From contig JABAQR010000028.1 in assembly GCA_019187485.1 (NCBI GenBank), positions 1 through 64,000 on the forward strand: a stretch of 64,000 bases of DNA, in the 5' to 3' direction. Each line of letters begins with the position of its first letter. Positions within the stretch are counted from its first letter, which is position 1. Origin of the DNA: Lysobacterales bacterium. Its GTDB lineage: Bacteria > Pseudomonadota > Gammaproteobacteria > Xanthomonadales > SZUA-5. The notes beneath the pieces are model-generated. The model was not told the DNA's origin. It saw only the letters and a list, made by a program, of their open reading frames with translations, and did not search any database. Below, piece after piece: positions 5,536 through 58,008 of this stretch. The position numbers and the translations under genes were made by a program.

Positions 5536-5570
5536 GGCGTGGAGGCACGCGAGCAACTGCTGCACATGCG

Positions 5571-5694: not shown

Positions 5695-5710
5695 CTTTGC
5701 TGCCTCGTCC

Positions 5711-9206: not shown

Positions 9207-9208
9207 GT

Positions 9209-9360
9209 GGGCACGAGGGCACGGGGAAAGCCCGCCCCTGGGGGGCGGCGCTCCGGCACCACCGCTTTCGCGGCACGCTGTACGGCGTGCCGTGCAGGAG
9301 CGCGGTCTTCCAGTCGTCGCGACCCCATTCTTTCCCGCACCCTCGTGCCCCATGCCCCGT
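9209..9360. repeat. word-array inverted repeat, word GGGCACGA
   Basis: The left arm (9209-9227) begins four bases after the stop codon of the PLD gene and contains two copies of GGGCACGA/GGGCACGG. The right arm (about 9333-9360) contains ACCCTCGTGCCCC and ATGCCCCG, the reverse complement. The spacer of about 105 bp is unrelated. The same word occurs at 37285-37412. It sits between the PLD gene and the ABC operon, both on the plus strand. Confidence 0.75.
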
Positions 9361-9438
9361 CCTCCCTCCCGCCATTCGCGTCGGGAACTTCGGCGGCCTC
9401 GTCCGCTCCCAGGGCATCCGTTGCAGCTGTACCCCGAC

Positions 9439-10116
9439 ATGATCGAGCTGAGCGCAGTCACCCGCACCTACACCATGGGCGACAACGAAGTGCACGCGCT
9501 GGCGGGCGTGGACCTGCGCATCGACGTCGGCGAATACGTCGCCATCACCGGCCCTTCGGGTTCGGGCAAATCCAGCCTGCTGAACCTGCTCGGTTGCCTC
9601 GATCAGCCCACCTCGGGCAGCTACCGGCTGGATGGCGAGGCGGTATCGCAGCTCGACGACGAGCGCGTCAGCGAGTTGCGCAGCCGCAAGATCGGTTTCG
9701 TGTTCCAGAGCTTCTTCCTGCTGCCGCGGCTGACGGTGCTGGAGAACGTGCTGTTGCCGCTGCGCTACGCGCGTGAGCCCGATCCGCAGGCACCGGCACG
9801 CGCACGCTCTCTGCTGGATCGCGTGGGTCTGTCGGACCGGCTGACGCATCGCCCGAACGAGCTGTCCGGTGGCCAGCAGCAGCGCGCCGCGATCGCGCGC
9901 GCGCTGATCCGTGCGCCGTGCCTGCTGCTCGCCGACGAGCCCACTGGCAACCTCGATTCGAAAAGCAGCGCCGACGTGCTGCGGCTGATCGGCGAGCTGC
10001 ACGCCGAAGGTCAGACCGTGGTGCTGGTCACCCACGACGCCGAGGTCGCCGCGAACGCGCCGCGCCACGTGCGCCTGCGCGATGGCCTGGTCGAAGGAGA
10101 CGATCGTCGTGGCTGA
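9439..10116 (+). CDS. ABC transporter ATPase, MacB/LolD type
   Basis: ATP-binding subunit of 225 residues with Walker A GPSGSGKSS (about residues 37-45), the Q-loop FVFQSFFLLP, the signature LSGGQQQR (about 142-149), Walker B LLLADEPTGNLDS and the H-loop VTHD. The GNLDS ending of Walker B is typical of the MacB/LolD/FtsE group. It supplies energy to the MacB-like permease at 13218-14468. The ATG at 9439 gives MIELSAVTRTY; the open frame runs further upstream through the repeat arm without homology. It overlaps the next gene by eight bases. Confidence 0.93.
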   Translation: MIELSAVTRTYTMGDNEVHALAGVDLRIDVGEYVAITGPSGSGKSSLLNLLGCLDQPTSGSYRLDGEAVSQLDDERVSELRSRKIGFVFQSFFLLPRLTVLENVLLPLRYAREPDPQAPARARSLLDRVGLSDRLTHRPNELSGGQQQRAAIARALIRAPCLLLADEPTGNLDSKSSADVLRLIGELHAEGQTVVLVTHDAEVAANAPRHVRLRDGLVEGDDRRG

Positions 10117-14468: not shown

Positions 14469-14527
14469 GCCTTCGCAAGACGTTTCGCCCCGCGAGGATC
14501 GTCGGGTTGGTCGCCTGCGGCGGTCCT

Positions 14528-15655
<1,128 letters not shown>

Positions 15656-15691
15656 TTATGGTAGATCGGTTGATCGCCCACGGAGACACCG

Positions 15692-16597
<906 letters not shown>

Positions 16598-16608
16598 ACA
16601 TCGCACCG

Positions 16609-16635
16609 GGGCGCCCGACCCGCGAGGGAGGAAAC
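16609..16635 (+). repeat. dispersed 27-bp repeat, copy 1
   Basis: A 27-bp sequence (GGGCGCCCGACCCGCGAGGG and then AGGAAAC) just after the OmpA gene. It recurs in reverse orientation at 35930-35956 with one mismatch (GGGCT for GGGCG). Both copies are intergenic and next to hairpin-forming sequence. Confidence 0.8.
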
Positions 16636-16666
16636 GTGGTCGCTCCGCCCAGGGGTGGGAAGCGCT

Positions 16667-16773
16667 GGACGCAAAGGGGAAAGGAAAGGACGCAAAGAAG
16701 AGCGGAAGCAGAATCTCCCGCCCACTCCTGCCTTTCTTCGCGTCCTTTGCGCCCCTTTGCGTACTTTGCGTCC
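16667..16773. repeat. word-array inverted repeat, word GGACGCAAA
   Basis: The left arm (16667-16700) contains two GGACGCAAAG words separated by GGGAAAGGAAA. The right arm (16731-16773) contains GCGTCCTTTGCG, CCCCTTTGCG and ACTTTGCGTCC, the reverse complement of the same word. Spacer about 30 bp. The word recurs at 20413-20459 and 31939-32065. The element fills much of the 16598-16891 gap between two convergent genes. Confidence 0.8.
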
Positions 16774-16868
16774 ACAAACAGGCGCTGCGATCAGCGCGGG
16801 AACTCGGGGCCGGGGCCAGTTCTTGGTTTCTTCGTGGACCCACGACGCGCGCGTCCAGGCCGGCTTCT

Positions 16869-16901
16869 ACTCACCACTCACTACTCACTACTCACCGCTC
16901 C
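16869..16901 (-). repeat. word array, GTGAGTA heptamer (single arm)
   Basis: On the minus strand this reads as tandem GTGAGTA/GTGAGTG heptamers that begin exactly at the stop codon of the YafK-type gene (stop TGA at 16892-16894). No clear complementary arm was found to the left. The same word forms the long array at 41827-41916. Confidence 0.7.
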
Positions 16902-17608
16902 TCGACACGATACTCGCCGGCGATCACGCGCACGCGTGGCGGGCGCCGGTCGCGCTCGAAGGCCTGGTAGCCGGCCGCCAGTTGCCGCCAGAAGGGCAGC
17001 CATTCGCTGTCGGCGTGCGCCTGCTCCCAGCCGGGGTCCATGCGGAAGGGAAAGGCGTGCACCGGCACCGCGCGCTGGCCGTGCGCGAGCGCGGCCGCGA
17101 CCAGCGAGTAGATCTCCTCGATCGCGGCGTCGCCCATCGCGTAGCAGCCGATCGACACGCAGTTGCCATGCACCATCAGGTAGTCGCCGCTGCGCCCGTG
17201 GTGGCGGTCGTAGGCATTCGGATAGCCAAGGTTGAAGGACAGGTGGTAGCGGCTGGCCGGATTCAACTGCTGTGGCCCGACCTGGTAGTAGCCCTCCGGC
17301 GCCTGAGCGTCGCCCTGGCGGGTCTTCGGTCCGAGTTCGCCGGACCAGTGGCAGATCGGCCAGGTGCGCAGCAGCCGATGGCCGGCGCTGGTATCGACCC
17401 AGACCTCGAGTTCGTCGCTGGCCTTGAAGATGCGCAGGTACAGCGGCGCGCCCCAGTCGGCGCCGAGCGCGCGCAGCTCCTCGGTCAACGCCGCCTGCAC
17501 GCGCGCCTGCGCCTGCGCCGAGCGCGCATTGGCCGGGATCTCGGCGCTCATCGCCGGCGCGGAGAGCGCGAGCAGCAGCAGGGCCAGGGGCAGCATCGGT
17601 GCGCGCAA
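16892..17608 (-). CDS. L,D-transpeptidase-fold protein, YafK/DpaA-like
   Basis: Exported YkuD-fold protein of 238 residues with a signal peptide (MRAPMLPLALLLLALSAPAMSA). The catalytic motif MVHGNCVSIGCYAM (about residues 144-157) has the H-G-x3-S-x-G-C signature. The surrounding LGYPNAYDRHHGRSGDYLMVHG is typical of the YafK subgroup. In E. coli YafK (DpaA) releases Braun lipoprotein from peptidoglycan rather than cross-linking it; the same role is inferred only. The stop codon lies inside the GTGAGTA word array. Transcribed in the same direction as the protease gene upstream of it. Confidence 0.9.
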   Translation of the reverse strand: MRAPMLPLALLLLALSAPAMSAEIPANARSAQAQARVQAALTEELRALGADWGAPLYLRIFKASDELEVWVDTSAGHRLLRTWPICHWSGELGPKTRQGDAQAPEGYYQVGPQQLNPASRYHLSFNLGYPNAYDRHHGRSGDYLMVHGNCVSIGCYAMGDAAIEEIYSLVAAALAHGQRAVPVHAFPFRMDPGWEQAHADSEWLPFWRQLAAGYQAFERDRRPPRVRVIAGEYRVEER

Positions 17609-17643
17609 GGGCGTGTTGGGAGAACCATCCTTCCGGGATGCTA

Positions 17644-17674
17644 GAAGAGGAAAAAGGAAAACGGAAAAAGGAAG
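17644..17674 (+). repeat. word array, GGAAAAA heptamer (single arm)
   Basis: Tandem heptamers GGAAAAA, GGAAAAC, GGAAAAA between the YafK-type gene and the subtilisin gene. No complementary arm was seen nearby. It resembles the GTGAAAA word at 41287. Confidence 0.65.
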
Positions 17675-17689
17675 TGCGACCTGCCCTGA

Positions 17690-20488
17690 TCAGCGCGGTG
17701 CGACGCGGTTCGCCGCAGTACTGAAGCTGCGCCCGGCCGAGGGCGCACCGGCGCCGACGGCGAGATCCTCGAAGCGGTCGGCGAACAGCTCCGGGGCATC
17801 GCAGGCGTTGCGCGCGTAGACCCGCCAGTAATACGTGCTGCCGGCGTCGAGCGGATTCGTCGGCGCCCATTCGCGCGCGCGCACCACCGCGCTGGTCACC
17901 GGAATGGCGAAGCCCGGATCGGCCGCGATCTCGACCCGGTAATCGTAGCCGCTGCCATTCCAGCGCAAGGTCGGCTGCTGCGGCAGGTTGGTCGCGGCAT
18001 CGGGTGGATCCTGGAGTTGCGGTGCGATCGATGGCGAATCGGCGACATACACCGAGAATTGCCGTGTCCGGTGGATCCCGGGCGCATCCGCCGCAACGCT
18101 CAGCGGATACTCGCCACGAGGCACGCCAGCGCTGTTCAACCGGAGCAGGCTGGTGCCGGGCAGTTCCGCAAGCGTCGCCGGATCGAAGCTGACCACGCCG
18201 GGCGAGGGCCAGCCGCCGAGGTCCAGCGTCACCGGCTCCTCGAAGCCGAGCAGCGGCGTCAGCCCGATCTCGCGCTCCAGCGCCTGGCCCGCGCACAGCG
18301 AGGCGGTGCTCAGGTCGAGTGCGAGCGTGAACGCGGGCTCGCTGCTGCAGTTGCTGCACACCAGCGCGAAGTCCTGGTCGGTCTCGTCGCCGCTTCCGGG
18401 GACGCCATCGCCCGGCAGCGCGCGCGCCCGGACCTGCACCTCGACGAGATCGGCGATCCCCGCAGGCAGCAGCACTTGCTCTACATTGTTCAGCGCATCG
18501 GCGACCCCGCCGACCGGGGTGTAACCACCGGCGCGCTGGTTGCCGAGGTAGTCCGCACCATCGACGCGCACGCGCAGGTCGAGGTCGTTGACCAGCGCCG
18601 GATTCGCGCCCGGCGCGCCGGGGGCGTCGCTCCAGGTCACGGTGATGCGCACCGGCTGGCTCGCATCCGCGACCGTCCATTGCGCGTCGAAAGCAGCGCC
18701 GTCCTCATCGAGCACGCTGTCCTGGTCGAGCAGCACGCGCGCGCGACCGGCGCCCAGGCTGCGCTGCAAGTCCACGCGCCCCCAGCCCTCGTCGTGGTTC
18801 GGCACCGGTGGCGCGCCGGCGAGGTCGACCGCACCGTCGACCAACAAGGCCTTCAGCATCGCCGGGCTCGGTGTGGCACCGGCCCGCCGCGCGCGCCAGT
18901 CCTGCACCAGCAGCGCGACGAGGCCGGAGACCTGCGGCGCCGCCATGCTGGTGCCGCTGCACAACGCGTAGTCCGCGTTCGGCCCGCTCGTCGCGAGCGC
19001 GTCGGCGCAGTAGTTGGCGCCGCCCATGCGCCGTACCGAGGCGATCTCGGTACCGGGCGCGACCACGGTCGGCAGGAAACGCCCGTCCAGCGCCGGCCCG
19101 CGCGCGCTCGCGCCGTTGATCTCGTCGATGCGCGGGACCGGCCGCGCCGACAGCGAGTTGCCGACGACGATGACGTTCTTGGCCTCCTTCGGCGCGCTGA
19201 TGGTGCCCGGCTGGGGGCCGCCGTTGCCGGCCGAGAACACCAGCACGAAAGGCTCGCGCGGCTCGCTGTCGAAATCGCCGTCGCGCACGATGAAATCATG
19301 CGTGCGCGCGGACGCGCCGTAACCGAGCCCGAGCAACTCGTTGCTGTGCCAGGAATTGTTGCTGCCGATGGCGCCGAGCAGCAGCGCACGCTGGCTGAGC
19401 GACTGCCAACCACCCAGCGGTGGCCAACTGCCGCCGGGCGCACCACAGATCGGGTTCAAGGCGACCAGTTCCACCGCAGGCGCGATGCCGATGCCGTGGT
19501 GGAAACCGTTCACGTCGAGCGCGCCCGGGATCGCGCCGCTGCCGGCGATGATTCCGGCGACGTGGCTGCCGTGGCCGCCGGTGATGCGGTCGTCGCCGGG
19601 GTTGCCCGGCGCCGAATCGCAACCCGGATAGTCGTGGCCGGCGACGATCCGCGGCGCGAGTTCGGGATGGGCGTAGTCGATGCCGGTGTCGGTGACCGCC
19701 AGGCGCACGCCGCTGCCGTCGAGGCCGAGCGTGCCCAGGAAGTCGAGGTAATCCGGTGGCGGCGGGGCCGATTCGGGATCGAAACGGCCGGCCACGATCT
19801 GGCTCGCGAGTTCGTCGTCGAGGCCAGCGCGCGGCGACTGGTATTCCAGCCACAGCACCGCGGGCCATTGCTGCAGCGCGTCGAGCCGGGCGGCGTCGAT
19901 GCGCAGGTACAGGCTCAGCAGCGCGCGATCCGGTTGCGCCGGCGCGCTGCCGGTCAGCTCGCCGCCGAGCGCGGCGATTTCCGCGAGCAGCCAGGGCAAG
20001 CGACCGTCGTCGTAGGCCAGCAGGTGCAACTGGTCGATGCGGCCGCTGGCGTGGTCGAGTTCGCGGCTGCGCTTCCACGCCGGCGGCAGTTCGCCCTGCC
20101 AGCGCAGGCCGGGGATCTGCGCCGCGCGCTGCGCAGCGGCGCCATCGCCCCAGGCCAGCCAGGCGCGATGCGGGTAGTACTGCAGCGGGCGCAAGCCCGC
20201 GGCGAGCAAGCCGTCGCGCTCGCGCTGGCCGGGGGAGTCCGCGAACTGCAGCAAGCGCAGACGCTCGCCGCCGGCCAGCGGCGCGGCCGGCAGGGCCAGC
20301 GGGTCGACGCGTACACGGCCAAAGGACAGCTCGGGGCCAGCCGCGGCGGACCCGGCGGCGAGCGCCAGGCCCAGGGCCAGCCAGGCGAGGCTCCAAGGAA
20401 GGCCGCTGCAGCGCTCCTTTGCGTCCTCGCTCTTTCGCTTTGCGTCCTTTGCGTCCAACGCCTTCCGCGCCCCCAGCGCAGCGATCAC
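17690..20488 (-). CDS. secreted subtilisin-like serine protease (S8)
   Basis: Large exported peptidase of about 930 residues. The S8 catalytic triad is visible: Asp in LAVTDTGIDYAHPE, His in GGHGSHVAGIIAG, and Ser in SGTSMAAPQVSGLVALL. A P-domain-like/beta-sandwich region follows, then a fibronectin-like segment (PPDAATNLPQQPTLRW) and a C-terminal stretch with LFADRFEDL that resembles the FxxGFE tag of other exported proteins here. The N-terminus is odd: there is no ATG, candidate starts are TTG 20506, GTG 20488 and TTG 20458, and the first 20-30 residues (KALDAKDAKRKSEDAKER) are encoded by the GGACGCAAA word array. The hydrophobic signal segment WLALGLALAAGSAAAG follows. GTG 20488 is a compromise. 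Confidence 0.88.
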   Translation of the reverse strand: MIAALGARKALDAKDAKRKSEDAKERCSGLPWSLAWLALGLALAAGSAAAGPELSFGRVRVDPLALPAAPLAGGERLRLLQFADSPGQRERDGLLAAGLRPLQYYPHRAWLAWGDGAAAQRAAQIPGLRWQGELPPAWKRSRELDHASGRIDQLHLLAYDDGRLPWLLAEIAALGGELTGSAPAQPDRALLSLYLRIDAARLDALQQWPAVLWLEYQSPRAGLDDELASQIVAGRFDPESAPPPPDYLDFLGTLGLDGSGVRLAVTDTGIDYAHPELAPRIVAGHDYPGCDSAPGNPGDDRITGGHGSHVAGIIAGSGAIPGALDVNGFHHGIGIAPAVELVALNPICGAPGGSWPPLGGWQSLSQRALLLGAIGSNNSWHSNELLGLGYGASARTHDFIVRDGDFDSEPREPFVLVFSAGNGGPQPGTISAPKEAKNVIVVGNSLSARPVPRIDEINGASARGPALDGRFLPTVVAPGTEIASVRRMGGANYCADALATSGPNADYALCSGTSMAAPQVSGLVALLVQDWRARRAGATPSPAMLKALLVDGAVDLAGAPPVPNHDEGWGRVDLQRSLGAGRARVLLDQDSVLDEDGAAFDAQWTVADASQPVRITVTWSDAPGAPGANPALVNDLDLRVRVDGADYLGNQRAGGYTPVGGVADALNNVEQVLLPAGIADLVEVQVRARALPGDGVPGSGDETDQDFALVCSNCSSEPAFTLALDLSTASLCAGQALEREIGLTPLLGFEEPVTLDLGGWPSPGVVSFDPATLAELPGTSLLRLNSAGVPRGEYPLSVAADAPGIHRTRQFSVYVADSPSIAPQLQDPPDAATNLPQQPTLRWNGSGYDYRVEIAADPGFAIPVTSAVVRAREWAPTNPLDAGSTYYWRVYARNACDAPELFADRFEDLAVGAGAPSAGRSFSTAANRVAPR
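20413..20459 (-). repeat. word array, GGACGCAAA 9-mer, inside coding sequence
   Basis: On the minus strand this reads GGACGCAAAGGACGCAAAG, then CGAAAGAGCGA, then GGACGCAAAGG. It encodes the charged N-terminal segment of the S8 protease. No complementary arm is visible nearby. The word is identical to those at 16667-16773 and 31939-32065. Confidence 0.75.
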
Positions 20489-20497: not shown

Positions 20498-20571
20498 TCG
20501 CTTCAAACGTCCAGCCTCGCCACCCGCAGCGCATTCGCTTCGATGAACTCCCTGCGCGGTTCCACGGCCTC
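20498..20571 (-). repeat. duplicated gyrB 3' end
   Basis: This 74-bp stretch is a direct repeat of 20658-20731, the last codons and stop of gyrB, at an offset of 160 bp. About 70 of 74 positions agree. It still encodes [14 protein letters not shown] followed by ARLDV and a stop, against ANLDV in the true gene. The rest of the 160-bp unit has diverged. Confidence 0.9.
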
Positions 20572-20662
20572 GTCCCGGCCCCTCGGCACAGCCTCGGGGC
20601 GTTCGGCCTTGCGCCGCATGCGGCGCAGAAACCGCGCAGGTTGGCTGGCCGGGCGCATCGCT

Positions 20663-24350
<3,688 letters not shown>

Positions 24351-41385: not shown

Positions 41386-41829
41386 ATGATCGCTCTCATC
41401 CAACGCGTCGCCCGCGCCCATGTCGAAGTGGACGGCACCACCGTCGGTGCCATCGGCTGCGGCGTGCTCGCGCTGGTTGCGGTCGAACGGGACGATGGTG
41501 CGGTGCAGGCGCGGCGCCTGCTCGAACGCATCGTCGGCTATCGCATCTTCGAGGACGCCGCCGGGCGCATGAACCGCTCACTCGACGACATCGGGGGCGA
41601 GCTGCTGCTGGTCTCGCAATTCACCCTCGCTGCGGATACGGGGAAAGGCATGCGCGCCAGTTTCACGCCGGCGGCGGCGCCGGAGGAAGGGCGGCGCTGG
41701 TTCGACCACCTCGTCGAACTTGCGCGCGTGCGCCGCCCCGGTGTCGCAACCGGCTGTTTCGGTGCCCATATGCAGGTGCACCTGGTGAATGACGGACCGG
41801 TGACTTTCTGGTTGCAGGTGAAGCCGTGA
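41386..41829 (+). CDS. dtd: D-aminoacyl-tRNA deacylase
   Basis: Enzyme of 147 residues that removes D-amino acids from mischarged tRNAs. The opening [17 protein letters not shown], the catalytic region [21 protein letters not shown] (about residues 72-92), and the cis-proline loop near the end (NDGPVTFWL) are diagnostic. The ATG at 41386 gives the expected N-terminus; the frame extends upstream into the repeat arm. Its stop codon TGA is the start of the GTGAGTA array. Confidence 0.95.
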
Positions 41830-41964
41830 GTGGTGAGTAGTGAGTAGTGAGTAGTGAGTAGTGAGTAGTGAGTAGTGAGTAGTGAGTAGTGAGTAGTGAG
41901 TAGTGAGTAGTGAGTAGCAGAAGCAGGGTTCTGGCGAGCTCTTGCCACTCACCACTCACCACTG
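41827..41964. repeat. long GTGAGTA heptamer array with complementary arm
   Basis: About 12-13 tandem GTGAGTA heptamers (41827-41916) start within the dtd stop codon. A shorter complementary arm CCACTCACCACTCACCACT lies at 41945-41963 after a 28-bp spacer. The heptamer contains TGA and TAG so that all three frames are closed. The array occupies much of the 302-bp gap between dtd and rpoD. Confidence 0.9.
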
Positions 41965-47699: not shown

Positions 47700-49226
47700 A
47701 TGCGGTTCGTGAGCGCCATGTTCGCGATGGCGGGTTTGCTGGGCGGGATGTCCTGCGGATCGCCGGTTTCGGCGCAGCTCCTGCCGAGTTTTCCGGGCGC
47801 TGAGGGTTTCGGCGCAGTCGCCTCGGGCGGACGGGGCGGGCAGGTGCTGTTCGTCGATACTCTGGCGGCCGACCCGAACGGGAACCTCGGTTCGGGCAAT
47901 CGTGGTTCGCTCAACTGGGCGTTGCGCCAGCCTGGTGCGCGCACCATCGTGTTCGAGGTCAGCGGCGTCATCGACGGTCCCGTGCAGGTGCGCTCGGGCA
48001 ACGTCACCATCGCCGGGCAGACTTCGCCGGGCGGGGTGATCGTGCGCGGCCTGTCCTGTGGCGTGCATTACGGCGGGCAGAACTGCGACAACCTCATCGT
48101 GCGCCACCTGCGCCTGCGTCCGGCCTGCCAGGTCACGCCGGGGAATTGCCCGCACGACGACGCATTGCGTCTGGACGGCGTCCAGCGCGTGATGATCGAC
48201 CACGTTTCCATGGCCAACGCCAACGACGAGGCGTTGCAGTTGAGCTGGGCCTCGGAAGTCACGATCCAGAACTCGATCCTGGCCGAAACCGAAGGCGGCC
48301 ACGCGATCTATGGCGGCATCCTGCTCAACTACGCCAACACCAACTGGCCGCAAGACGGCATCAGCATCGTGCGCAACCTGTTCTACCGCATCAAGGGACG
48401 CCTGCCCGAGATCAACTGCGAGTCGAGCGCGCAGGACGATATCCCGCCGCGCCTCATCGACGCCTGCCAGAACGTGCCGCTGCGGCTGGAGGTGTCGAAT
48501 AACTACTACTTCGATCCGTACTACTACGTCACCTATGCGCGGTGGGTGGACGGGAATTCGGCCAATGGGCCGTACCGCGTGCGGTACAACATGGTCGCAA
48601 ATCACTTCCACGTGCGTCCGGATTTCCCTTACGGCATGGTCGAGATCGCCATGCTGCACAACAGCCAGAACAGCCTGTACGTGAGCGACAACTGGATCGA
48701 CTTGTATCCGGGTCTGCAGGACTACGCGCTGTTCTACTGCTGTAACGATTTTTCCACGACGCTGCCGAGCGGAAACACCGACCTGGGCAGCGCCACGCGC
48801 CACAGCACGCGGCACTCGTTCCCGGCGATCAGCTATGTGCCGACGGGCAACCTGCTGTCCGCCGTCGTGCCGTCAGCCGGCGCGCGTCCGCACGACCCGA
48901 TGGATCGGCGCATCACCGCCTCCGCGCTCGGCGGCACGATCCCGAACATTCCGCACGAACAGCCGCTCGCCAATGATGCGCTGACCCTGGACTTTCCTTC
49001 GGGCAACCCGCCACCGGCGCCGCCCGACGGCGACGAGGACGGCATGCCCGATGCCTTCGAGCTGGCCCACGGCCTCAATCCGAACGCCGCCGACCACAAC
49101 GGTTCCGCGCTGTCGCTGCCACTCCTGGGCGTGGCCGGCTACACCAACCTCGAGGTGTATCTGGAACTGCTTGCGCGCGGCGGGGATCCCGAGCGCGTGT
49201 TCAAGGACGGGTTCGAGGGCGGCTGA
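47700..49226 (+). CDS. secreted pectate-lyase-like beta-helix protein with C-terminal tag
   Basis: Exported protein of 508 residues (signal MRFVSAMFAMAGLLGGMSCG, then SPVSA). It resembles polysaccharide-lyase family 1: the start FPGAEGFGAVASGGRGGQVL, the turn-rich beta-helix with VTIAGQTSPGGVIVRGL, and DHVSMANANDEALQLSW. After a linker comes a calcium-binding type 3 repeat (DGDEDGMPDAFELAHGLNPN, about residues 447-466). It ends VFKDGFEGG, a variant of the C-terminal motif seen in other exported proteins here. Substrate unknown. ATG 47700 follows CGGGAGC. Confidence 0.85.
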   Translation: MRFVSAMFAMAGLLGGMSCGSPVSAQLLPSFPGAEGFGAVASGGRGGQVLFVDTLAADPNGNLGSGNRGSLNWALRQPGARTIVFEVSGVIDGPVQVRSGNVTIAGQTSPGGVIVRGLSCGVHYGGQNCDNLIVRHLRLRPACQVTPGNCPHDDALRLDGVQRVMIDHVSMANANDEALQLSWASEVTIQNSILAETEGGHAIYGGILLNYANTNWPQDGISIVRNLFYRIKGRLPEINCESSAQDDIPPRLIDACQNVPLRLEVSNNYYFDPYYYVTYARWVDGNSANGPYRVRYNMVANHFHVRPDFPYGMVEIAMLHNSQNSLYVSDNWIDLYPGLQDYALFYCCNDFSTTLPSGNTDLGSATRHSTRHSFPAISYVPTGNLLSAVVPSAGARPHDPMDRRITASALGGTIPNIPHEQPLANDALTLDFPSGNPPPAPPDGDEDGMPDAFELAHGLNPNAADHNGSALSLPLLGVAGYTNLEVYLELLARGGDPERVFKDGFEGG

Positions 49227-49427: not shown

Positions 49428-50000
49428 ATGTCCGGGCCAGATTCCAGCGCATCTGCCGATCTGACATCGCAACTGAACGCTGCGCGCGCGGGCGATCGCG
49501 ATGCCGCCGAAAGGGCGCTGGGACAGGTGTACGCGGAGCTCAAGCGCATGGCCGGTGCGCTGCTGCGCGGCAATTCGCTGACGATCAATGCGACTTCGCT
49601 GGTGCACGACGCCTTCCTGCGCCTGATTCCCGAGTCCGAACGCCAGTTTGCGGACCGCCGGCACTTCTTCCGGGTGGCGGCCAAGGCGATGCGCCAGATC
49701 CTGGTCGACCAGGCGCGCGCACGCTCAGCCGACAAGCGCGGCGGCGCCTGGGTGCGCACCCAGCTCACTGACCGGATCGCCGAAACCGGCAACGACCCGG
49801 TGGACCTGCTGGCGCTGGATGCCGCCCTGACCCGATTGCAGGCGCGCGATGCCGAACTGGCGGAAATCGTCGAAGCCTATTTCTTCGCCGGCTTCACTTT
49901 CGAGGAGATCGCCGACATCCGCCAGATGGGCGAGCGCAGCGTGCGCCGCCAATGGGAAGTGGCACGTCTGTTCCTGATGAAGGAACTGGACACGCCGTGA
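49428..50000 (+). CDS. ECF-type RNA polymerase sigma factor
   Basis: Alternative sigma factor of 190 residues. Region 2 contains LGQVYAELKRMAGALLRGNS and SLVHDAFLRLIPESE and a RHFFRVAAKAMRQILVDQAR stretch (about residues 82-101); region 4 is FEEIADIRQMGERSVRRQWE followed by ARLFLMKEL. The family (sometimes called Sig70 ECF of the kinase-linked type) often sits next to a Ser/Thr kinase, as here (kinase starts 64 bases later). No anti-sigma factor of the zinc type is adjacent, so the kinase is the likely regulator. A fragment of a close copy lies at 52909-53000. Confidence 0.9.
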   Translation: MSGPDSSASADLTSQLNAARAGDRDAAERALGQVYAELKRMAGALLRGNSLTINATSLVHDAFLRLIPESERQFADRRHFFRVAAKAMRQILVDQARARSADKRGGAWVRTQLTDRIAETGNDPVDLLALDAALTRLQARDAELAEIVEAYFFAGFTFEEIADIRQMGERSVRRQWEVARLFLMKELDTP

Positions 50001-50063
50001 GGGCTGCCGGATTTCCTGCGGGCCTGCGTTTGTCGGGTGTGCCCAGCTTGCGTATGACTGCCG

Positions 50064-52853
50064 ATGCCCACCTCCCATAACGAACTGCGGGCACTGGTCG
50101 AACAGGTGCTGGAACTTGCGAGCGCGCAGGAGCGCGAAACCCTGCTCGCCGGCTGGCCCGACCCCGCGCTCGCCGCCGAGGCGCGCGCGCTGCTCGGCCT
50201 CGCCGCGCGTGCAGCCGTGCTGGATCGCGGTGCAATCGGATTGGCGCAACTCGCCGAGGCGCCGGAATTGCCCGAGCGCATCGGCCCCTACCGCATCGTC
50301 GGCCTGCTCGGCAGTGGCGGCATGGGCGCGGTCTACCACGGCGTGCGCGACGACGGCAGCTTCCGCAAGGACGTCGCGATCAAGGTGGTGCGCGATGTGT
50401 ACTCGGCCGAACAACGCCAGCGCTTCGAGCGCGAGCGCGAACTCCTGGCCCGGCTGGAACACCCCGGAATCGCCCGCGTGCTCGATGGCGGCAGCACCGC
50501 CGGCGGACAGTCCTGGATGGCGATCGAGCGAGTGGTCGGCCTGCCGCTCGACGAATACGTGCGTGCCCATGGCCTGGGGCTGCGCCAGCGCATCGAATTG
50601 CTGCTCGGGGTGCACGCGGCGGTCCAGTTCGCGCACCAGAACCTGATCGTGCACCGCGACCTGAAACCGGCCAACGTGCTGGTGGATGCCGACGGGCGGC
50701 CGCGGTTGCTGGACTTCGGCGTGGCCAAGCTGCTCGGTGAGGTGGACCACACCCAGACCGCCGGGCGCGCACCGATGACCTTCGCGTACGCGGCGCCGGA
50801 ACAGGTCCGCGGCGAGGCGATCACCACTGCCACCGATGTCTACGCCCTCGGCGTGATGCTGTACGAGCTGCTGACGGGGGACCGGCCGCACAAACCCCGC
50901 GGCGAGAACCCGCTCAGCCTGCTGCAGGCGATCACCGACACCGATGCCACGGCGCCGAGCATTGCGCTGGCCAGGCTCAGTCGCGGCACCGGCGAGGGGA
51001 TCGCCGCCACCCAGCTTCGTGGAGACCTGGACACGATCTGCCTGAAGGCGCTGAGCCGCGATCCGCAGCGGCGCTATGCCAGCGTCCAGGCCTTCGCCGA
51101 CGACTTGCGCGCGTATCTTGAGAGCCGCCCGATCAGCGCGCGCCGCGACAGTGGCAGCTACCGCCTGGGCAAATGGCTGCGGCGCAACCCGATGCTTGCG
51201 GCCAGCCTGATCCTGCTGGCGTTGAGCATCGTGGCCGGCGCCTGGTTCAGTCTCCGCTACGCCCGCGCCGCGAACCAGGAGGCCGAGCGCGCGCTGGCGC
51301 AACTGCGCGCCACCGATGCGTTGAGTCAGGTGCTGACCGGCATGTTCGCCGATGCCAGCCCCTACCGCAGCTCGCGCGCCGGCGTCACCGTGGAAAACCT
51401 GTTGCGCCTGGCCGCGCAGCGCGCGCAGGCCGAGTTGCAGGGCGAGCCCGATCTGCGCCTCAACGTGCAGAGCGATCTTGCCCTGGCGGTGCACTTCGCG
51501 GTGGATTCGGAACAGGGCATCGCCCAGCTCAAGGACTTGTGGGAACAGGCCGAGCGCGATCCGTCGGTGGATCCGGAAGTCCGGCTCCGCGCGCTGCTGA
51601 ATCTCATCGCTGCCTACGACAATGCGGCCAAGACCGGCGACAGCGCGGAACTGCGGCCGCGGGTCGCGGCTTTCCGACCCGAGCCCGAGGCAGGCACCTT
51701 GCTTTGGTATCGGCGCCAGCGCGCGTTACTCGATACCACCGATTACGGGCCCGATTCGATCGCCGCGCTGCGCGAATTTGGGCAAAAGGCCGGCAGATTC
51801 CGCGAGAGCTGGAAGTGGGAGACGCAGGCGATGGTTGCGCGCTACCTGCGCCGCGCCGGTCGCTTCGAGGAGTCCGACCCGCTGCACGAGCAGTTGATCG
51901 CCCACTACCGGGCATCCGGCGAACGCCTGGCGCTGGCCTCGGTGCTGCGCACCTCGGTGTACAAGGCGGCCTCCAGCCGCCACAAGGTCGCGCGGATCCA
52001 GGAGGCGCTCGACATCACCGTCGCCGAACTGGGGGCGGATCACCCGGATACCCTGCTGACGCGGATGAACCTGATCGAGGCGCGGCTCGCGACCGGCGAA
52101 GTCGATCAGGTCGATGGCGAGTTTCTTGCGCTGATCGAGCAGCAGCGGCGCTACCGCAGCGAGGTCACGGTCGCGACCCTGGTCAACTATGTGCGTTACC
52201 TGATCGACCGGCGCGATTTCCGCCGCGCGGCGCCCTTCACCGAGGAGGCACTGGCGCTCGCACCGGGCCTGAAGCTGAACAAGGACGCGCCGATGGCACT
52301 GGCCCCAAGGCTGTACGCCCTGCAGGTGGAACTTGGGCTGGGCAACATCGCATCGGTGGCTGCGGACCTGCCGGCCCTGATCGAGGACGCCCGCCATGCG
52401 CCGCCGGCTTACTGGCGGATGCTGCTGCTGTCGGCCGAGCTGCAGCAGCGCCAGGGCGCTCACCGCGAGGCCCTGGCGACGGCGATGCAGGCGCTGGATG
52501 CGCTGCCGCCACGGCCGGCCGAGGCGCCGCCGACCACCCATGAGGGACGCGTGCAGCTGCTGCTCGGAGAGCTGCAGTTGATGCTGGGCGACCGGGTGCA
52601 GGCGCGCGCCAGCCTGGAGCGCGCGCTGGCGGTCGATGCAGCCGTGCCCGAACCCTGGGTCGTGTGGCCAGCCCGCGCGCAGTGGCTGCTGGCGGAGGCA
52701 CTCGCGGGGGAGCCAGGCCAGGATGCGCGTGTGGCCGCACTGCGCGAACAGGCGATCGCTCGCATCGCCCGGCTGACGCCGCCGGACGATCCCTGGCGCC
52801 GCGAAGCTGCGCAGGTCGAAGCTGCCGCCCTGCGCCAAGCCGATCGGCCCTGA
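50064..52853 (+). CDS. membrane Ser/Thr protein kinase with TPR-like C-terminal region
   Basis: Protein of 929 residues. The cytoplasmic kinase domain (about residues 75-355) has the glycine loop GSGGMGAVY, the lysine in VAIKVV (about K107), HRDLKPANVL (about D199), DFG (about 217-219) and APEQVRGEAITTATDVYALG. A single membrane helix follows (about 374-395, MLAASLILLALSIVAGAWFSL in two parts MLAASLILLALS/IVAGAWF). The remainder is alpha-helical with tetratricopeptide-like repeats and probably lies outside the membrane or in the periplasm. Kinases of this plan are partners of ECF sigma factors. The downstream genes encode surface proteins, suggesting that this pair controls them; this is inference. 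Confidence 0.9.
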   Translation: MPTSHNELRALVEQVLELASAQERETLLAGWPDPALAAEARALLGLAARAAVLDRGAIGLAQLAEAPELPERIGPYRIVGLLGSGGMGAVYHGVRDDGSFRKDVAIKVVRDVYSAEQRQRFERERELLARLEHPGIARVLDGGSTAGGQSWMAIERVVGLPLDEYVRAHGLGLRQRIELLLGVHAAVQFAHQNLIVHRDLKPANVLVDADGRPRLLDFGVAKLLGEVDHTQTAGRAPMTFAYAAPEQVRGEAITTATDVYALGVMLYELLTGDRPHKPRGENPLSLLQAITDTDATAPSIALARLSRGTGEGIAATQLRGDLDTICLKALSRDPQRRYASVQAFADDLRAYLESRPISARRDSGSYRLGKWLRRNPMLAASLILLALSIVAGAWFSLRYARAANQEAERALAQLRATDALSQVLTGMFADASPYRSSRAGVTVENLLRLAAQRAQAELQGEPDLRLNVQSDLALAVHFAVDSEQGIAQLKDLWEQAERDPSVDPEVRLRALLNLIAAYDNAAKTGDSAELRPRVAAFRPEPEAGTLLWYRRQRALLDTTDYGPDSIAALREFGQKAGRFRESWKWETQAMVARYLRRAGRFEESDPLHEQLIAHYRASGERLALASVLRTSVYKAASSRHKVARIQEALDITVAELGADHPDTLLTRMNLIEARLATGEVDQVDGEFLALIEQQRRYRSEVTVATLVNYVRYLIDRRDFRRAAPFTEEALALAPGLKLNKDAPMALAPRLYALQVELGLGNIASVAADLPALIEDARHAPPAYWRMLLLSAELQQRQGAHREALATAMQALDALPPRPAEAPPTTHEGRVQLLLGELQLMLGDRVQARASLERALAVDAAVPEPWVVWPARAQWLLAEALAGEPGQDARVAALREQAIARIARLTPPDDPWRREAAQVEAAALRQADRP

Positions 52854-52908
52854 GGCCACTCGGTCAGTCAGAATCGTTCAGCGGTGCACCCCCTGCCTGG
52901 CGCCAAGC

Positions 52909-53000
52909 GTGTCCAGCAATCCCGCCGACCTCACGTCGCAACCGAACGCCGCGCGCGCTGGGACAGGTTTACGCGGAGCTCAAGCGCATGGCCGGCGTGT
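52909..53000 (+). pseudogene. fragment of an ECF sigma gene
   Basis: The stretch aligns with the 5' part of the ECF gene at 49428: CGACCTCACGTCGCAACCGA against the corresponding codons for ADLTSQ, then an internal gap of about 20-25 bases, then TACGCGGAGCTCAAGCGCAT, identical to the functional gene. The 3' end is lost and the reading frame is broken (no start-to-stop frame of the sigma type). It lies in the 297-bp gap between the kinase and the first S74 protein. Confidence 0.8.
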
Positions 53001-53150
53001 CCGTTGGTGGCCGCAAGGCAGGTGTTCGTGTGCTCGCGTCCTGGTGCAAAGCCTGGCGTATTTGCTGCCGGTTTTTCCGGCGCGCTACGTCTGTGGGTTT
53101 GACCGGCGCTTCAGCCGCCGGTCGGTCGCCCACCCCGCACGGAGTCCGCC

Positions 53151-54938
53151 ATGCACCGCCTCGCTCGCAGTATCGCCCTGAGCCTGTCGCTCGCCACATC
53201 CGCCACCGTCGGCGCCGCGCCCTGGACCTACCGCGGCACCCTGAACGACGGCGGCGCGCCCGCCAATGGTCGCTACGACATCCGGCTCAGCGTGCTGGAT
53301 GCCGGCGGCGTGAAGTCGCTGGCCTACCCGTTGACCTTCAGCCATGTCGACGTCCGAGATGGCGCCTTCGCGGTCGATGTCGACTTCGGCGTCGACCTCA
53401 CGCTGCTCGGCGCGGTCAAGCTCAGGACCGAGGTGGCGCAGGGCGGCAGCGCCTTCGTCGCGCTCGGCGAGCCGCAGGCCTTCGATGCCAAGGCGGCGCT
53501 GGCGGGCGTGTGCTGGGATACGCAGGGAAACGCCGGGACCGATCCCGCCACCAACTTCATCGGGACCACCGACCTGCGAAGTCTGGTGTTCCGTGTCGGC
53601 AATCTGCCGGCACTGGCGCTCACGCCATTCGCGGGTAATCAACCGGCCCTGTTCGTTCCCGGCAATTCGGTCTCATCGCTGGCCAGTGCGGGAGTTGCAC
53701 TCGGGGGCGGTAGCCCGGCGGCGGCACAGCACACGCTGTCGGGCGACTACGCTTCGATCACCGGCGGCTACAGCAATTCCGCTACAGGAGACCGCAGCCA
53801 TGTCGGTGGCGGAGACGACAATTCAGCCAGCGGCTACGCCAGCGTCGTCGCGGGTGGCGGCAACAATGGTGCATCGGGCATCTACAGCACCGTGGGCGGT
53901 GGTCAAAGCAATTTCGCGACTGGAACCAGCGGAATTGAAGCGTGGACGACCGTCGGTGGCGGATACGGCAACAAGGCCAGCGGGGATTCCAGCACAGTGG
54001 CTGGAGGCAACTCGAACGATTCGTCCGGCATTTACAGCACGGTTCCGGGAGGCAGGCTGAACTGTGCAGGGGGAGATATGTCGTTCGCGGCAGGATTTCG
54101 TGCCGTGACCAGGGCAGGGAACCAGGCGGGCGACGAGCAGTGTTTCCAGGTGGCCGGGTCCGGGGATGCCAACGGCGACGAAGGTACCTTCATCTGGGCG
54201 GATTCGCAGAACGCCAACTTCATCTCCACTGGCCCCAACCAGTTCCTGGTCCGCAGCGAGGGTGGCGTCGGCATCAACGGCACACCGGCCGCGGCCGGCC
54301 TCGAAATGAGCATCTTCGGCGCCACGCCCTTCGATGGCTTCGTCGAATTCGGCCTGATCCCCAAACCTTCCCTCAACGGCAACACCGGCGAGCGCGTCGA
54401 GTTCGGGGTCGGCAAGGGCGGCGTGGGCGCCAACGACGCCGACCTGCGCATCGTGCACCGCAACGACAGCAGCGCCTTCTTCGAACACCTGAGCATCGAT
54501 GGCGACGGCAGCGTGATCGTCCGCTCCAACCCGGCCAACACCAACCAGGGCGTGCAACTGGCGATCGGTGCGGGCGCCTGGTCCACCCTGTCCGACCGCA
54601 ACCTCAAGACCGACATCCAGTCGATCCTGCCGCTCGACGTGCTGGAACGACTGGTCGCGATGCCGATCCAGCAGTGGCGCTACATCGGACAGCCCGGCGA
54701 GGTGCAGCACATCGGCCCGATGGCGCAGGACTTCGCCGCGGCCTTCGGCGTCGGCGAGAACGACACCACGATCTCCACCGTGGACGCCGACGGCGTGGCG
54801 CTGGCGGCGATCCAGGGATTGAACCAGAAGCTCGAAACCGAGCTCGAGCAGGCGCGCGCGGAAAACGCCGGGCTGCAGGCGCAACTGCAGCAACTGGCGG
54901 CACGGCTGGCGGCGCTCGAAGCCGCCGGGGGGCGCTGA
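53151..54938 (+). CDS. exported YadA-head/S74 chaperone-domain protein 1
   Basis: Protein of 595 residues with a signal peptide (MHRLARSIALSLSLATSATVGA). The N-terminal domain (about 25-120) starts WTYRGTLNDGGAPANGRYDI, a motif shared with the protein at 55735. The middle (about 195-310) has about eight YadA-type head repeats (pattern GGG-x-N-x-A-x-G-x-x-S-x-V-x-GG). The C-terminal domain (about 475-560) is a peptidase S74 intramolecular chaperone: LSDRNLKTDI carries the S-x4-K catalytic pair (about S481, K486) that cleaves itself off after trimer folding. The last 35 residues form a coiled coil. It probably builds a trimeric surface fibre. Confidence 0.85.
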   Translation: MHRLARSIALSLSLATSATVGAAPWTYRGTLNDGGAPANGRYDIRLSVLDAGGVKSLAYPLTFSHVDVRDGAFAVDVDFGVDLTLLGAVKLRTEVAQGGSAFVALGEPQAFDAKAALAGVCWDTQGNAGTDPATNFIGTTDLRSLVFRVGNLPALALTPFAGNQPALFVPGNSVSSLASAGVALGGGSPAAAQHTLSGDYASITGGYSNSATGDRSHVGGGDDNSASGYASVVAGGGNNGASGIYSTVGGGQSNFATGTSGIEAWTTVGGGYGNKASGDSSTVAGGNSNDSSGIYSTVPGGRLNCAGGDMSFAAGFRAVTRAGNQAGDEQCFQVAGSGDANGDEGTFIWADSQNANFISTGPNQFLVRSEGGVGINGTPAAAGLEMSIFGATPFDGFVEFGLIPKPSLNGNTGERVEFGVGKGGVGANDADLRIVHRNDSSAFFEHLSIDGDGSVIVRSNPANTNQGVQLAIGAGAWSTLSDRNLKTDIQSILPLDVLERLVAMPIQQWRYIGQPGEVQHIGPMAQDFAAAFGVGENDTTISTVDADGVALAAIQGLNQKLETELEQARAENAGLQAQLQQLAARLAALEAAGGR

Positions 54939-54939
54939 G

Positions 54940-55215
54940 ATGCGCGCCACCGCACTGCTCTTGCTGCTGGTCTTCCCCGCGCCGGGCGTCACGGCGCCGG
55001 CGCCGCGATTCAGCGGCTCGGGCACCCTGGTCGAAGGCGCCGCGGAAAGCGCGGACGGACGTTATCGGCTGGCGGCCGATCTGAAACGCCGCGACGACCG
55101 CCAGCAGGGCGGCCGCTTCAGCATCGATGCCCGGCTCACGGTCAGCGATGCGCTCAAGTCGGCGAATACCGCGTGCAACGCGGGGGGCGACATCTTTCGC
55201 AACGGGTTCGAGTGA
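54940..55215 (+). CDS. small exported protein with C-terminal FRNGFE tag
   Basis: Protein of 91 residues with a signal peptide (MRATALLLLLVFPAPGVTAP). The mature region (FSGSGTLVEGAAESADGRYR, about residues 24-43) is beta-rich. It ends DIFRNGFE, the same motif as the protein at 55361 (LFRNGFE). It starts two bases after the stop of the S74 protein, so it is almost certainly co-transcribed with it. No family is recognised. Confidence 0.6.
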   Translation: MRATALLLLLVFPAPGVTAPAPRFSGSGTLVEGAAESADGRYRLAADLKRRDDRQQGGRFSIDARLTVSDALKSANTACNAGGDIFRNGFE

Positions 55216-55360
55216 GTTTTCACCGGATTGCAGCCCGAACCGCGAGAGATGAAACCCCCTCGCCCCACCGGTGACGCATGCCGGTTGCCGGGAATCCTGC
55301 CGGTTCTGGCGTCGGATTGCGTCTGTGAGGTCAAGCCCATCACGAAGGCGACACGCTGCC

Positions 55361-55723
55361 ATGCCTGCTCCCAGAGTCTGTAGCCCTCCGTCCGGTCCCC
55401 ACGACCTTCCGTGGGCGCCACCAGCGCCCACTTCGACCTCCGCGCTGGCCGCCGCCGCCGCCGCCGCGGGCGCTGGCGCGCTGTTGCTTGCCGCAGCGCT
55501 CGCCGCGCAGGTACCCACCGGCGGCCCCTACAGCCTGCCGCGCCAGGTGATCGGCGCGGGTGGCGCGCGCGCCAGCGGCGGCAGCTACGTGCTGGTCGGC
55601 ACCATCGGCCAGGCGGCCACGGGGCCGGCGAGCGGGTCCGGCTACGCCATCCAACAGGGTTTCCATGCCGCAGCGCCCGCCGGGCCGCTGCCGGATCAGT
55701 TGTTTCGTAACGGTTTCGAATGA
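55361..55723 (+). CDS. small exported protein with C-terminal FRNGFE tag
   Basis: Protein of about 120 residues. The N-terminus is proline-rich, then an alanine-rich hydrophobic stretch (ALAAAAAAAGAGALLLAAAL) that could be a late signal or anchor. The mature domain QVIGAGGARASGGSYVLVG, then TIGQAATGPASGSGYAIQQGFHA resembles small beta-structured domains found in secreted proteins, and the last residues are LPDQLFRNGFE. Its stop overlaps an ATG four bases upstream of the next gene's ribosome binding site, so it is coupled to 55735. Alternative starts exist upstream at 55271. Confidence 0.6.
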   Translation: MPAPRVCSPPSGPHDLPWAPPAPTSTSALAAAAAAAGAGALLLAAALAAQVPTGGPYSLPRQVIGAGGARASGGSYVLVGTIGQAATGPASGSGYAIQQGFHAAAPAGPLPDQLFRNGFE

Positions 55724-55734
55724 GGGGAATCGCC

Positions 55735-58008
55735 ATGATCAAACGACTTGCGGCCGCCATCCTGCTGGCCCTTCCGATGTCCGCCTTCGCGCTGAGCAAT
55801 AGCTTCAGCTACCAGGGCAGCCTCAACGATGGCGGCACGCCCGCCAGCGGCAGCTACGACCTGCAGTTCCAGTTGCAGACCAGCGCCGGCGTCAACGTCG
55901 GCGCGCCGCTGGTGCGCGAGGATGTGGCCGTTGCGGCCGGACTGTTCTCGGTGGAGCTGGATTTCGGCGCCGCCATCACCAGCGCCGACTTCCGGCTGCA
56001 GATCGGCGTCCGTCCAGGCGCCTCGGTCGGGGCGTTCACCACGCTCTCGCCGACCACCAACCTGCGGCCCGCGCCGCAGGCGCAGGTGGCGGGCATCGCC
56101 TCGGAGGCGGTAACGGTCAGTCCCAATGCCGTCAACAGCGCCAGCGTGGCCAATGAATCGCTGTCGGGCGTGGATATCCAGGACGGCACCCTGAGTGGCG
56201 CCGACATCCAGGATGGCGAGATCCGGACGGCCGATATCGCCGACGGCACCATCCTGGCGCTCGACGTCGATACGACCGTGATCCAGGCGCGCGTCAACAA
56301 CAGTTGCCTGGCCGGTTCGGCGATCCGCGCCATCGGCCAGGGCGGGGCGGTGACCTGCGAGACCATCCCGGCGGGCGGCAGCGGCACCGTGACCAGCGTG
56401 GCCAGTGGCGCCGGCCTGACCGGCGGCCCGATCACCACCAGCGGCACGTTGTCGATCGCCACCGGCGGCGTGACCAGCGCGATGATCTTCGATGGTACGG
56501 TCGCCAATGCCGACCTGGCGACGAACGCGGTCAATGCCGGCAACATCGTCGACGGCAGCATCGGCAGCGCCGACGTCAACACCGCCCAGGTGCAGGCGCG
56601 CGTCTCCGGCACCTGCCTCGCGGGCAGCAGCATCCGCCAGGTGAATGCCGACGGCACGGTCAGCTGCGAGAGCGATGACATCGGCTGGAGCCTCGGCGGC
56701 AACCTCGGCACCAATCCGGCCACCCAGTACCTCGGCACCTTCGATGCGCAGCCGCTGGAGATCCGCACCGCGAACGCGCGCAGCCTGCGCATCGAACCGA
56801 GCGCGGAGACCTTCGGCGCGCCGGCGCTGCCGATCACCCGCAACCTGATCGCCGGCAGCCACGCGAATACGGTCAGCGCCGGGACGCGTGGCGCGACCAT
56901 CGCCGGCGGCGGCCTGCCGAGCGGCGAAAGCGATCCCTTCTTCAACAGCGAGGCGCCCAACCAGGTGACCGGGCATTTCGGCACGGTCGGAGGCGGTTTC
57001 GCCAACATCGCGGCACTGGGAGGCACGGTCGCCGGCGGCCTGCAGAATGAAGCCACCGGCTCGTCGTCCAGCACGGTCGGCGGCGGCGTCGACAACGTGG
57101 CCAGCGGTGGCTTGAGCACCGTGGCGGGCGGCTTCACCAACCTCGCCAGCGGGCTCGCCAGCAGCGTGGCCGGAGGTGAGGTGGTCAGCGCCACCGGCCG
57201 CAACAGCATGGCCAGCGGCGGCCGCTTGAATTGCGCCGGTGGCGACTACTCCTGGGTGGGCGGGCGGCGCGCCAAGGCACGGGTTGGCAACGAGGCCGGC
57301 GACGGCAGCTGCGCGACCGGTTCCGGCGATGCCGACGGCGACAACGGCAGCTTCGTCTGGGCCGACAGCCAGGATGCGGACTTCGTGTCCTCCGGCGCCA
57401 ACCAGTTCCTGGTGCGCGCGGACGGCGGCTTCCTGTTCAACACCAGCAGCCTGCCGAATCCGATCGACGACTTCGTGATCCGCAGCCGCAACGGCGTGGG
57501 CGACCCGAACATCGACCTGACGCTGCTGACCGCATCCGGCAAGGCGGCGCGCTTCGAAGTGGCGGACACCTCGGGTTCCATCTACCTGGTGCCCGGCAAC
57601 GTCGGCGCCGGTGAAGCGCGCCTGGTGGTCACCGGTGGCACCGGCGGCGTGGCCACGCTCAGCAACGGCGGCACCTGGACCAATGCCTCCAGCCGCAGCT
57701 ACAAGACCGGCTTCGGCGCGGTCGACCCGGTGGCGATCCTCGATCGTCTGGTGGCGCTGCCGATCAGCACCTGGACCTACCGTGGCTCGCAGGAAGGCAC
57801 CCACCTCGGCCCCATGGCCGAGGACTTCAAGGCGGCTTTCGACCTCGCCGGCGATGGCAAGTCGATCTCCACCGTGGATGCCGACGGCGTCGCGCTGGCG
57901 GCGATCCAGGGCCTCAACCGCAAGCTCGAATCGGAAAACGCGGCACTGCGCGCAGAACTGGCGGAACTGCGCCGGCTGGTGCTGGAGCGGCTGCGCGGGG
58001 AATCCTGA
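55735..58008 (+). CDS. exported YadA-head/S74 chaperone-domain protein 2
   Basis: Protein of 757 residues with a signal peptide (MIKRLAAAILLALPMSAFA). It shares the N-terminal domain (SYQGSLNDGGTPASGSYDL) with the protein at 53151. A DG-rich segment (VDIQDGTLSGADIQDGEI, about residues 145-165, and a second set) follows. YadA-type head repeats (GGGFANIAALGGTVAGG, GGGVDNVASGGLSTVAGG) occupy about 410-500. The DSQDADFVSSGANQFLVRAD motif is also shared. The C-terminal S74 domain has its S-x4-K pair in SSRSYK (about S652, K657), then the DADGVALAAIQGLNRKLE chaperone helix. GAGGGGA precedes the ATG at 55735. It probably forms a trimeric fibre like protein 1. Confidence 0.87.
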   Translation: MIKRLAAAILLALPMSAFALSNSFSYQGSLNDGGTPASGSYDLQFQLQTSAGVNVGAPLVREDVAVAAGLFSVELDFGAAITSADFRLQIGVRPGASVGAFTTLSPTTNLRPAPQAQVAGIASEAVTVSPNAVNSASVANESLSGVDIQDGTLSGADIQDGEIRTADIADGTILALDVDTTVIQARVNNSCLAGSAIRAIGQGGAVTCETIPAGGSGTVTSVASGAGLTGGPITTSGTLSIATGGVTSAMIFDGTVANADLATNAVNAGNIVDGSIGSADVNTAQVQARVSGTCLAGSSIRQVNADGTVSCESDDIGWSLGGNLGTNPATQYLGTFDAQPLEIRTANARSLRIEPSAETFGAPALPITRNLIAGSHANTVSAGTRGATIAGGGLPSGESDPFFNSEAPNQVTGHFGTVGGGFANIAALGGTVAGGLQNEATGSSSSTVGGGVDNVASGGLSTVAGGFTNLASGLASSVAGGEVVSATGRNSMASGGRLNCAGGDYSWVGGRRAKARVGNEAGDGSCATGSGDADGDNGSFVWADSQDADFVSSGANQFLVRADGGFLFNTSSLPNPIDDFVIRSRNGVGDPNIDLTLLTASGKAARFEVADTSGSIYLVPGNVGAGEARLVVTGGTGGVATLSNGGTWTNASSRSYKTGFGAVDPVAILDRLVALPISTWTYRGSQEGTHLGPMAEDFKAAFDLAGDGKSISTVDADGVALAAIQGLNRKLESENAALRAELAELRRLVLERLRGES

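What the first reader, a model, noticed from the sequence alone, without database searches (positions are those of the whole stretch)
49428..58008. ECF sigma, membrane Ser/Thr kinase and self-cleaving trimeric surface fibres in one block
The kinase-linked sigma pair is followed by two proteins that combine a shared N-terminal domain, YadA-type head repeats and an S74 chaperone domain with S-x4-K, separated by two tagged small proteins. S74 domains are best known from phage tail spikes, while YadA heads are adhesin parts. The combination suggests a signal-controlled system that builds surface fibres.
Basis: partly seen in the sequence, partly recalled or inferred. Interest (0 to 1): 0.62.

Follow-up and report, generated by a model that had tools for sequence, protein, structure and literature searches.

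The report
Kinase-linked self-cleaving surface fibre cassette
A bacterium of the order Lysobacterales carries a gene block in which a membrane kinase and its partner sigma factor sit next to genes for probably three-stranded, self-trimming surface fibres and small tagged helper proteins; the same grouping recurs in many relatives far more often than chance, which suggests that these bacteria switch surface fibres on in response to an outside signal.

Summary
ECF sigma factor, transmembrane Ser/Thr kinase, two secreted S74 fibres with the exact S481/K486 and S652/K657 dyads, and two small proteins ending FRNGFE are all there. The head repeats are UspA1-type rather than YadA-type, and there is no YadA anchor.

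In 75 S74 loci from 48 genomes, chosen without regard to sigma factors, an ECF gene of the same family lies within 5 kb 18 times; 2.4 are expected from each genome's own ECF density (P about 1e-10). In several loci the order is identical: ECF, kinase, fibre, small tagged protein. The small protein is often translationally coupled to the fibre gene (24 of 90 S74 genes against 12 of 475 controls). The linked sigma factors are not one clade, so the association arose repeatedly. All 47 sigma factors keep the threonine that kinases phosphorylate in EcfK and EcfP.

Most likely it is a kinase-gated surface-fibre cassette: the fibre resembles Bdellovibrio MAT fibres, the switch resembles PknS-EcfK. 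Regulation itself is inferred. The FxN/DGFE C-terminal tag is specific to this order within its class and I found no description of it.

The parts
47700..49226 (+). Secreted pectate-lyase-like protein ending VFKDGFEGG (variant of the C-terminal tag); neighbour, probably not part of the cassette
   Evidence: PF00544 only weak (E 0.008, below cut-off), NCBIfam PelZ E 1e-14 but below cut-off; translation
49428..50000 (+). ECF sigma factor, TIGR02999 (Sig-70_X6); region 2.2 reads N-A-T56-S instead of an acidic DAED-like motif
   Evidence: 173.7 bits; T56 aligned with EcfK T51, 47/47 ECFs keep this Thr
50064..52853 (+). Transmembrane Hanks-type Ser/Thr kinase with a C-terminal extracytoplasmic TPR-like region
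   Evidence: Pkinase E 1e-38, TPR_12 below cut-off; TM 377-395 and active-site motifs
52924..52995 (+). Decayed duplicate of the 5' end of the sigma gene, between kinase and first fibre gene
   Evidence: 40/41 nt (49515-49555 vs 52955-52995) and 30/35 nt (49455-49489 vs 52924-52958) identical
53151..54938 (+). S74 fibre 1: Sec-type N-terminus, N-terminal beta domain (about 24-112), UspA1-type GG repeats, S74 chaperone/protease domain S481/K486, C-terminal coiled coil
54940..55215 (+). Small secreted partner, type A, ending IFRNGFE; starts 1 nt after the fibre stop codon
   Evidence: family alignment A3; coupling test
55271..55723 (+). Small secreted partner, type B, ending LFRNGFE; start codon uncertain; sits 11 nt upstream of the second fibre gene
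   Evidence: homologues next to S74 genes in many loci
55735..58008 (+). S74 fibre 2: signal peptide, N-terminal beta domain, repeat stalk, UspA1-type GG repeats, S74 domain S652/K657

Best explanation
A chromosomal, kinase-gated surface-fibre cassette. Shown: the anatomy, the invariant S74 dyad, the recurring linkage of ECF-kinase pairs with S74 fibre genes, and the tight coupling of fibre genes to small tagged secreted proteins. Inferred: the kinase's extracytoplasmic region senses an envelope or external signal; the kinase phosphorylates the sigma factor at T56, supplying the negative charge that region 2.2 lacks; the sigma factor transcribes the fibre genes, in the same run of genes (52853 to 53151 is the only long gap). 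The fibre chains are exported by Sec, trimerise with the help of the S74 domain, which then cuts itself off at S481 or S652, leaving a UspA1-like head on a stalk whose conserved N-terminal beta domain is the likely attachment end. The small coupled proteins are co-exported partners, possibly anchors or adaptors, sorted by the GFE tag.
For: ECF within 5 kb of S74 genes: 18 seen against 2.37 expected, 15 of 75 loci in 14 genomes (densities). Same-strand order ECF-STK-S74 in L099, L117, L120, L122, L147, L155 and, with intervening ORFs, L100; divergent versions in L091 (twice) and L160. In two further genomes not used before, 3 of 8 fibre loci have an ECF within about 1.2 kb: G054 92 nt and 190 nt, G112 1.2 kb. 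Coupled small GFE protein: 24/90 S74 genes against 12/475 control genes, Fisher P 1e-12, gaps often +1 or -4. Phospho-acceptor Thr in 47/47 ECFs; phosphorylation at that position activates EcfK and EcfP (PMC13147305, PMC8999054). S-x4-K invariant. Head like UspA1 and S74 like MyRF ICA by profile and by fold. A Bdellovibrio S74 fibre with signal peptide and N-terminal beta domain self-cleaves at its Ser.
Against: About 80% of S74 loci have no ECF within 5 kb. In this genome the C5 fibre has a divergent kinase but no ECF nearby, and the C34 fibre was found with neither. In G004 the orthologous fibre, small protein and kinase are together but in another order and without a nearby ECF. The sigma factors are not one clade, so a shared promoter was not sought. 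No promoter was identified. A terminator-like stem lies at 53053-53071 between kinase and fibre, though such sites are no commoner than in shuffles.
Confidence: 0.6

Rival explanations
1. The linkage reflects a shared genomic neighbourhood for accessory secreted proteins; the ECF-kinase pair controls other genes and the fibre genes have their own regulation.
For: Most S74 loci lack the pair; linked ECFs are scattered over the ECF tree; ECF-kinase pairs also lie beside other secreted proteins in this genome.
Against: 7.6-fold enrichment against each genome's own ECF density; repeated identical order and strand with tight spacing.
Confidence: 0.22
2. The fibre or its small partner is the input rather than the output: the secreted proteins are bound by the kinase's outer domain and the pair monitors fibre assembly or envelope state.
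For: The kinase often lies beside a fibre gene without any ECF (L031 divergent, L041, L045).
Against: No interaction evidence; the PknS-EcfK and PknT-EcfP precedents are output switches.
Confidence: 0.12
3. The fibre genes are remnants of a prophage or tail-spike locus.
For: S74 domains are common in phage tail proteins; PHROG tail-fibre hit E 2.5e-10.
Against: In annotated phages only the 15% C-terminal S74 part matches; one related viral contig in 2.9 million; signal peptides; fibres of this type in 85 of 151 genomes of the order.
Confidence: 0.03

Closest known systems
Bdellovibrio mosaic adhesive trimeric (MAT) fibres, S74 subgroup (PMC10769870)
   Same: Signal peptide, conserved N-terminal beta domain, repeat fibre, C-terminal S74 with S-x4-K; several paralogues per genome
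   Different: Here a UspA1-type GG-repeat head, a coupled tagged small protein and a linked ECF-kinase pair; homology of the N-terminal domains could not be tested
PknS-EcfK of Xanthomonas citri and PknT-EcfP of Vibrio parahaemolyticus (ECF43)
   Same: Transmembrane Hanks kinase beside an ECF sigma factor whose region 2.2 lacks the acidic motif but keeps the phosphorylated Thr
   Different: Known outputs are a T6SS and polymyxin resistance; here the neighbours are surface fibres
Moraxella UspA1 head (trimeric autotransporter adhesins)
   Same: GG-repeat beta-roll head (3pr7, profile E 3e-27; top Foldseek match)
   Different: No YadA-type membrane anchor; an S74 domain sits at the C-terminus instead
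Phage S74 tail spikes / MyRF ICA domain
   Same: S74 intramolecular chaperone with Ser-Lys dyad
   Different: Chromosomal, secreted, not next to virion genes

Membership tests
STPK-activated ECF sigma factors (ECF43-like) | ECF fold, adjacent Hanks kinase, no anti-sigma gene seen | tested here: met
STPK-activated ECF sigma factors (ECF43-like) | Uncharged region 2.2 motif with Thr at the EcfK T51 position | tested here: met
   NATS with T56; Thr in 47/47 ECFs
STPK-activated ECF sigma factors (ECF43-like) | Direct phosphorylation by the kinase | not testable with these tools
   needs a kinase assay
STPK-activated ECF sigma factors (ECF43-like) | Placement in the ECF43 phylogenetic group | not tested
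   no ECF group models were at hand; TIGR02999 is broader
MAT fibres (S74 subgroup) | Signal peptide and C-terminal S74 with S-x4-K | tested here: met
   (S74b hydrophobic core); fibre 1 has a weaker core but the Sec-like N-terminus MHRLARSIALSLSLATSATVGAA
MAT fibres (S74 subgroup) | N-terminal beta domain homologous to that of MAT proteins | tested here: inconclusive
   a confident beta fold of about 90 aa without a close PDB match, but no Bdellovibrio sequence could be reached
MAT fibres (S74 subgroup) | Demonstrated trimer and autocleavage | not testable with these tools
   needs protein
Trimeric autotransporter adhesins | TAA-type head repeats | tested here: met
   UspA1 3pr7 E 3e-27
Trimeric autotransporter adhesins | C-terminal YadA membrane anchor | tested here: not met
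   no anchor family in the Pfam scan; the C-terminus is S74 plus coiled coil
Phage tail spikes | Relatives over the whole length in phages; virion genes nearby | tested here: not met
   gene list

The most novel reading that the evidence does not exclude
The cassette is a signal-gated fibre-display system in which the small translationally coupled protein, carrying an order-specific C-terminal F-x-(N/D)-G-F-E tag, anchors or delivers the S74 fibre, and the tag is an undescribed sorting or anchoring signal used by dozens of secreted proteins in Lysobacterales.
Probability: 0.25. Interest if true: 0.78.

Novelty: new variant of a known kind. Interest (0 to 1): 0.6.

Why it matters
It gives kinase-activated ECF sigma factors, which are numerous and mostly without known outputs in these bacteria, a testable class of targets, and it ties phage-like S74 fibres to bacterial signal transduction outside predatory bacteria. 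The coupled tagged protein is a direct lead to how such anchor-less fibres are held on the cell, and the tag itself may mark a protein-sorting route confined to one bacterial order.

Tried and rejected
Dedicated sigma clade: rejected, 13 label changes against 15.8 in shuffles. Prophage origin: rejected. YadA head by Pfam: not found; UspA1 fits better. A known family or CTERM model for the tag or for the small proteins: none; only a sub-cut-off PamT hit for type B and a weak choice-of-anchor Q hit for one tagged protein. Literature on the tag, searched by motif letters: nothing relevant. Structure of the small protein: model too weak to use (pLDDT 58). Sigma-70 promoter or terminator scan: nothing above shuffles. 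A general link of ECF genes with tagged proteins: in this genome, among the ECF matches over cut-off, only the window's own ECF was seen with a strict tag nearby, judged by eye from the lists.

Full report
What is there. The window lies in a 3.83 Mb genome whose nearest named relatives are Lysobacterales MAGs. On the plus strand run an ECF sigma factor (49428-50000), a transmembrane Ser/Thr kinase (50064-52853), an S74 fibre (53151-54938), two small proteins ending FRNGFE (54940-55215, 55271-55723) and a second S74 fibre (55735-58008).

The fibres. Both have a Sec-type N-terminus, a shared beta domain, a repeat region and a C-terminal S74 domain followed by a coiled coil. A profile of the family matches the UspA1 head (3pr7, E 3e-27), the MyRF S74 (ICA) domain (E 2e-5) and, weakly, a phage neck appendage protein. 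The model of fibre 1 (mean pLDDT 74, N-domain around 90) has UspA1 and MyRF ICA among its best PDB matches, although no Foldseek match passes E 0.001. The nearest described system is the MAT fibre family of Bdellovibrio, whose S74 members have a signal peptide, a conserved N-terminal beta domain and proven self-cleavage at the S74 serine. Whether the N-terminal domains are homologous could not be tested. Fibres of this type occur in 85 of 151 sampled genomes of the order. Phages match only over the S74 domain.

The switch. The kinase has the active-site motifs, one TM helix at 377-395 and about 530 residues beyond it. In kinase-activated ECF sigma factors region 2.2 lacks the acidic motif, and phosphorylation of a threonine there supplies the charge (EcfK T51; second Thr of QTTA in EcfP). 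The window's sigma factor has N-A-T56-S at this place, and all 47 related sigma factors from linked and unlinked loci keep this threonine.

Is the linkage real? S74 fibre loci were collected by fibre sequence alone, and sigma genes of the same family were then sought around them. Using each genome's own count of TIGR02999 sigma genes, 18 lie within 5 kb of a fibre gene where 2.37 are expected; 15 of 75 loci in 14 genomes are affected (at the level of loci P about 3e-8). The same order and strand as in the window is seen in seven loci, including Rudaea (L117) and Chiayiivirga (L155), and divergent pairs occur elsewhere, including Phycisphaerae (L160). Two genomes not used for the first test (G054, G112) add three fibre loci of eight with an ECF within about 1.2 kb; reading the lists side by side, roughly 0.5 would be expected within 5 kb. 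The linked sigma factors are spread over the sigma tree, so different pairs have joined fibre genes repeatedly, or pairs have been exchanged. Most fibre loci have no pair nearby, so the association is a strong tendency, not a rule.

The small proteins. In 24 of 90 S74 genes the next gene encodes a small protein with the GFE tag whose start lies between -50 and +3 nt of the fibre stop, most often +1 or -4; only 12 of 475 other genes in the same loci have this. There are two sequence families (type A alignment) with no Pfam match. In this genome tagA sits 1 nt after the first fibre gene, and tagB lies directly upstream of the second one. The type B neighbour recurs beside S74 genes in many relatives.

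The tag. The pattern F-x-(D/N)-G-F-E-stop occurs 27 times in this genome and never reversed; 20 of 22 examined carriers have a Sec-like N-terminus. Counts reach 56 per genome in some families of the order and are zero in others. Among genomes of other orders of the class there were at most two, about the control rate. I found no family model and no paper on it; the library is open-access only, so a description elsewhere is possible.

Signs of rearrangement. A decayed copy of the sigma gene's start lies between the kinase and the first fibre gene (52924-52995). In G004 the orthologous fibre, small protein and kinase (about 65, 57 and 65% identical) are still together, but the kinase is downstream. 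The neighbourhood was kept while the order changed.

Verdict. Known parts in a recurrent combination that I did not find described: a kinase-gated S74 fibre cassette with a coupled tagged partner. Linkage, coupling and catalytic residues are shown; regulation, trimerisation, cleavage and surface display are inferred.

Noticed in passing
window 55195-55215, 55703-55723 and 25 other places in the genome: C-terminal tag F-x-(N/D)-G-F-E-stop on secreted proteins: 27 in this genome, up to 56 in relatives, absent from some families of the order and at control level in the rest of the class; no family model or paper found.
   Followed up: partly
window 52924-52995: Decayed duplicate of the sigma gene's 5' end between kinase and fibre gene.
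   Followed up: partly
L091 (JAJTHZ010000034.1) 1-19511: Array of several S74 fibres with type B tagged proteins and two divergent ECF-kinase pairs in 19 kb.
   Followed up: no
L031 (own genome C5), about 5165-5321: A second kinase of the genome is divergently adjacent to another S74 fibre, without an ECF gene nearby.
   Followed up: no
window 41826-41917 and 16867-16900: Short tandem repeat array with an inverted similar stretch 25 kb away (self-comparison).
   Followed up: no
window 20498-20731 and 23216-23310: A 74-nt direct repeat (95% identical) and a 95-nt imperfect palindrome.
   Followed up: no
L186 (IMGVR_UViG_3300028462_000071): The only contig of the viral collection with a relative of these fibres; may be a misassigned bacterial contig.
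   Followed up: no
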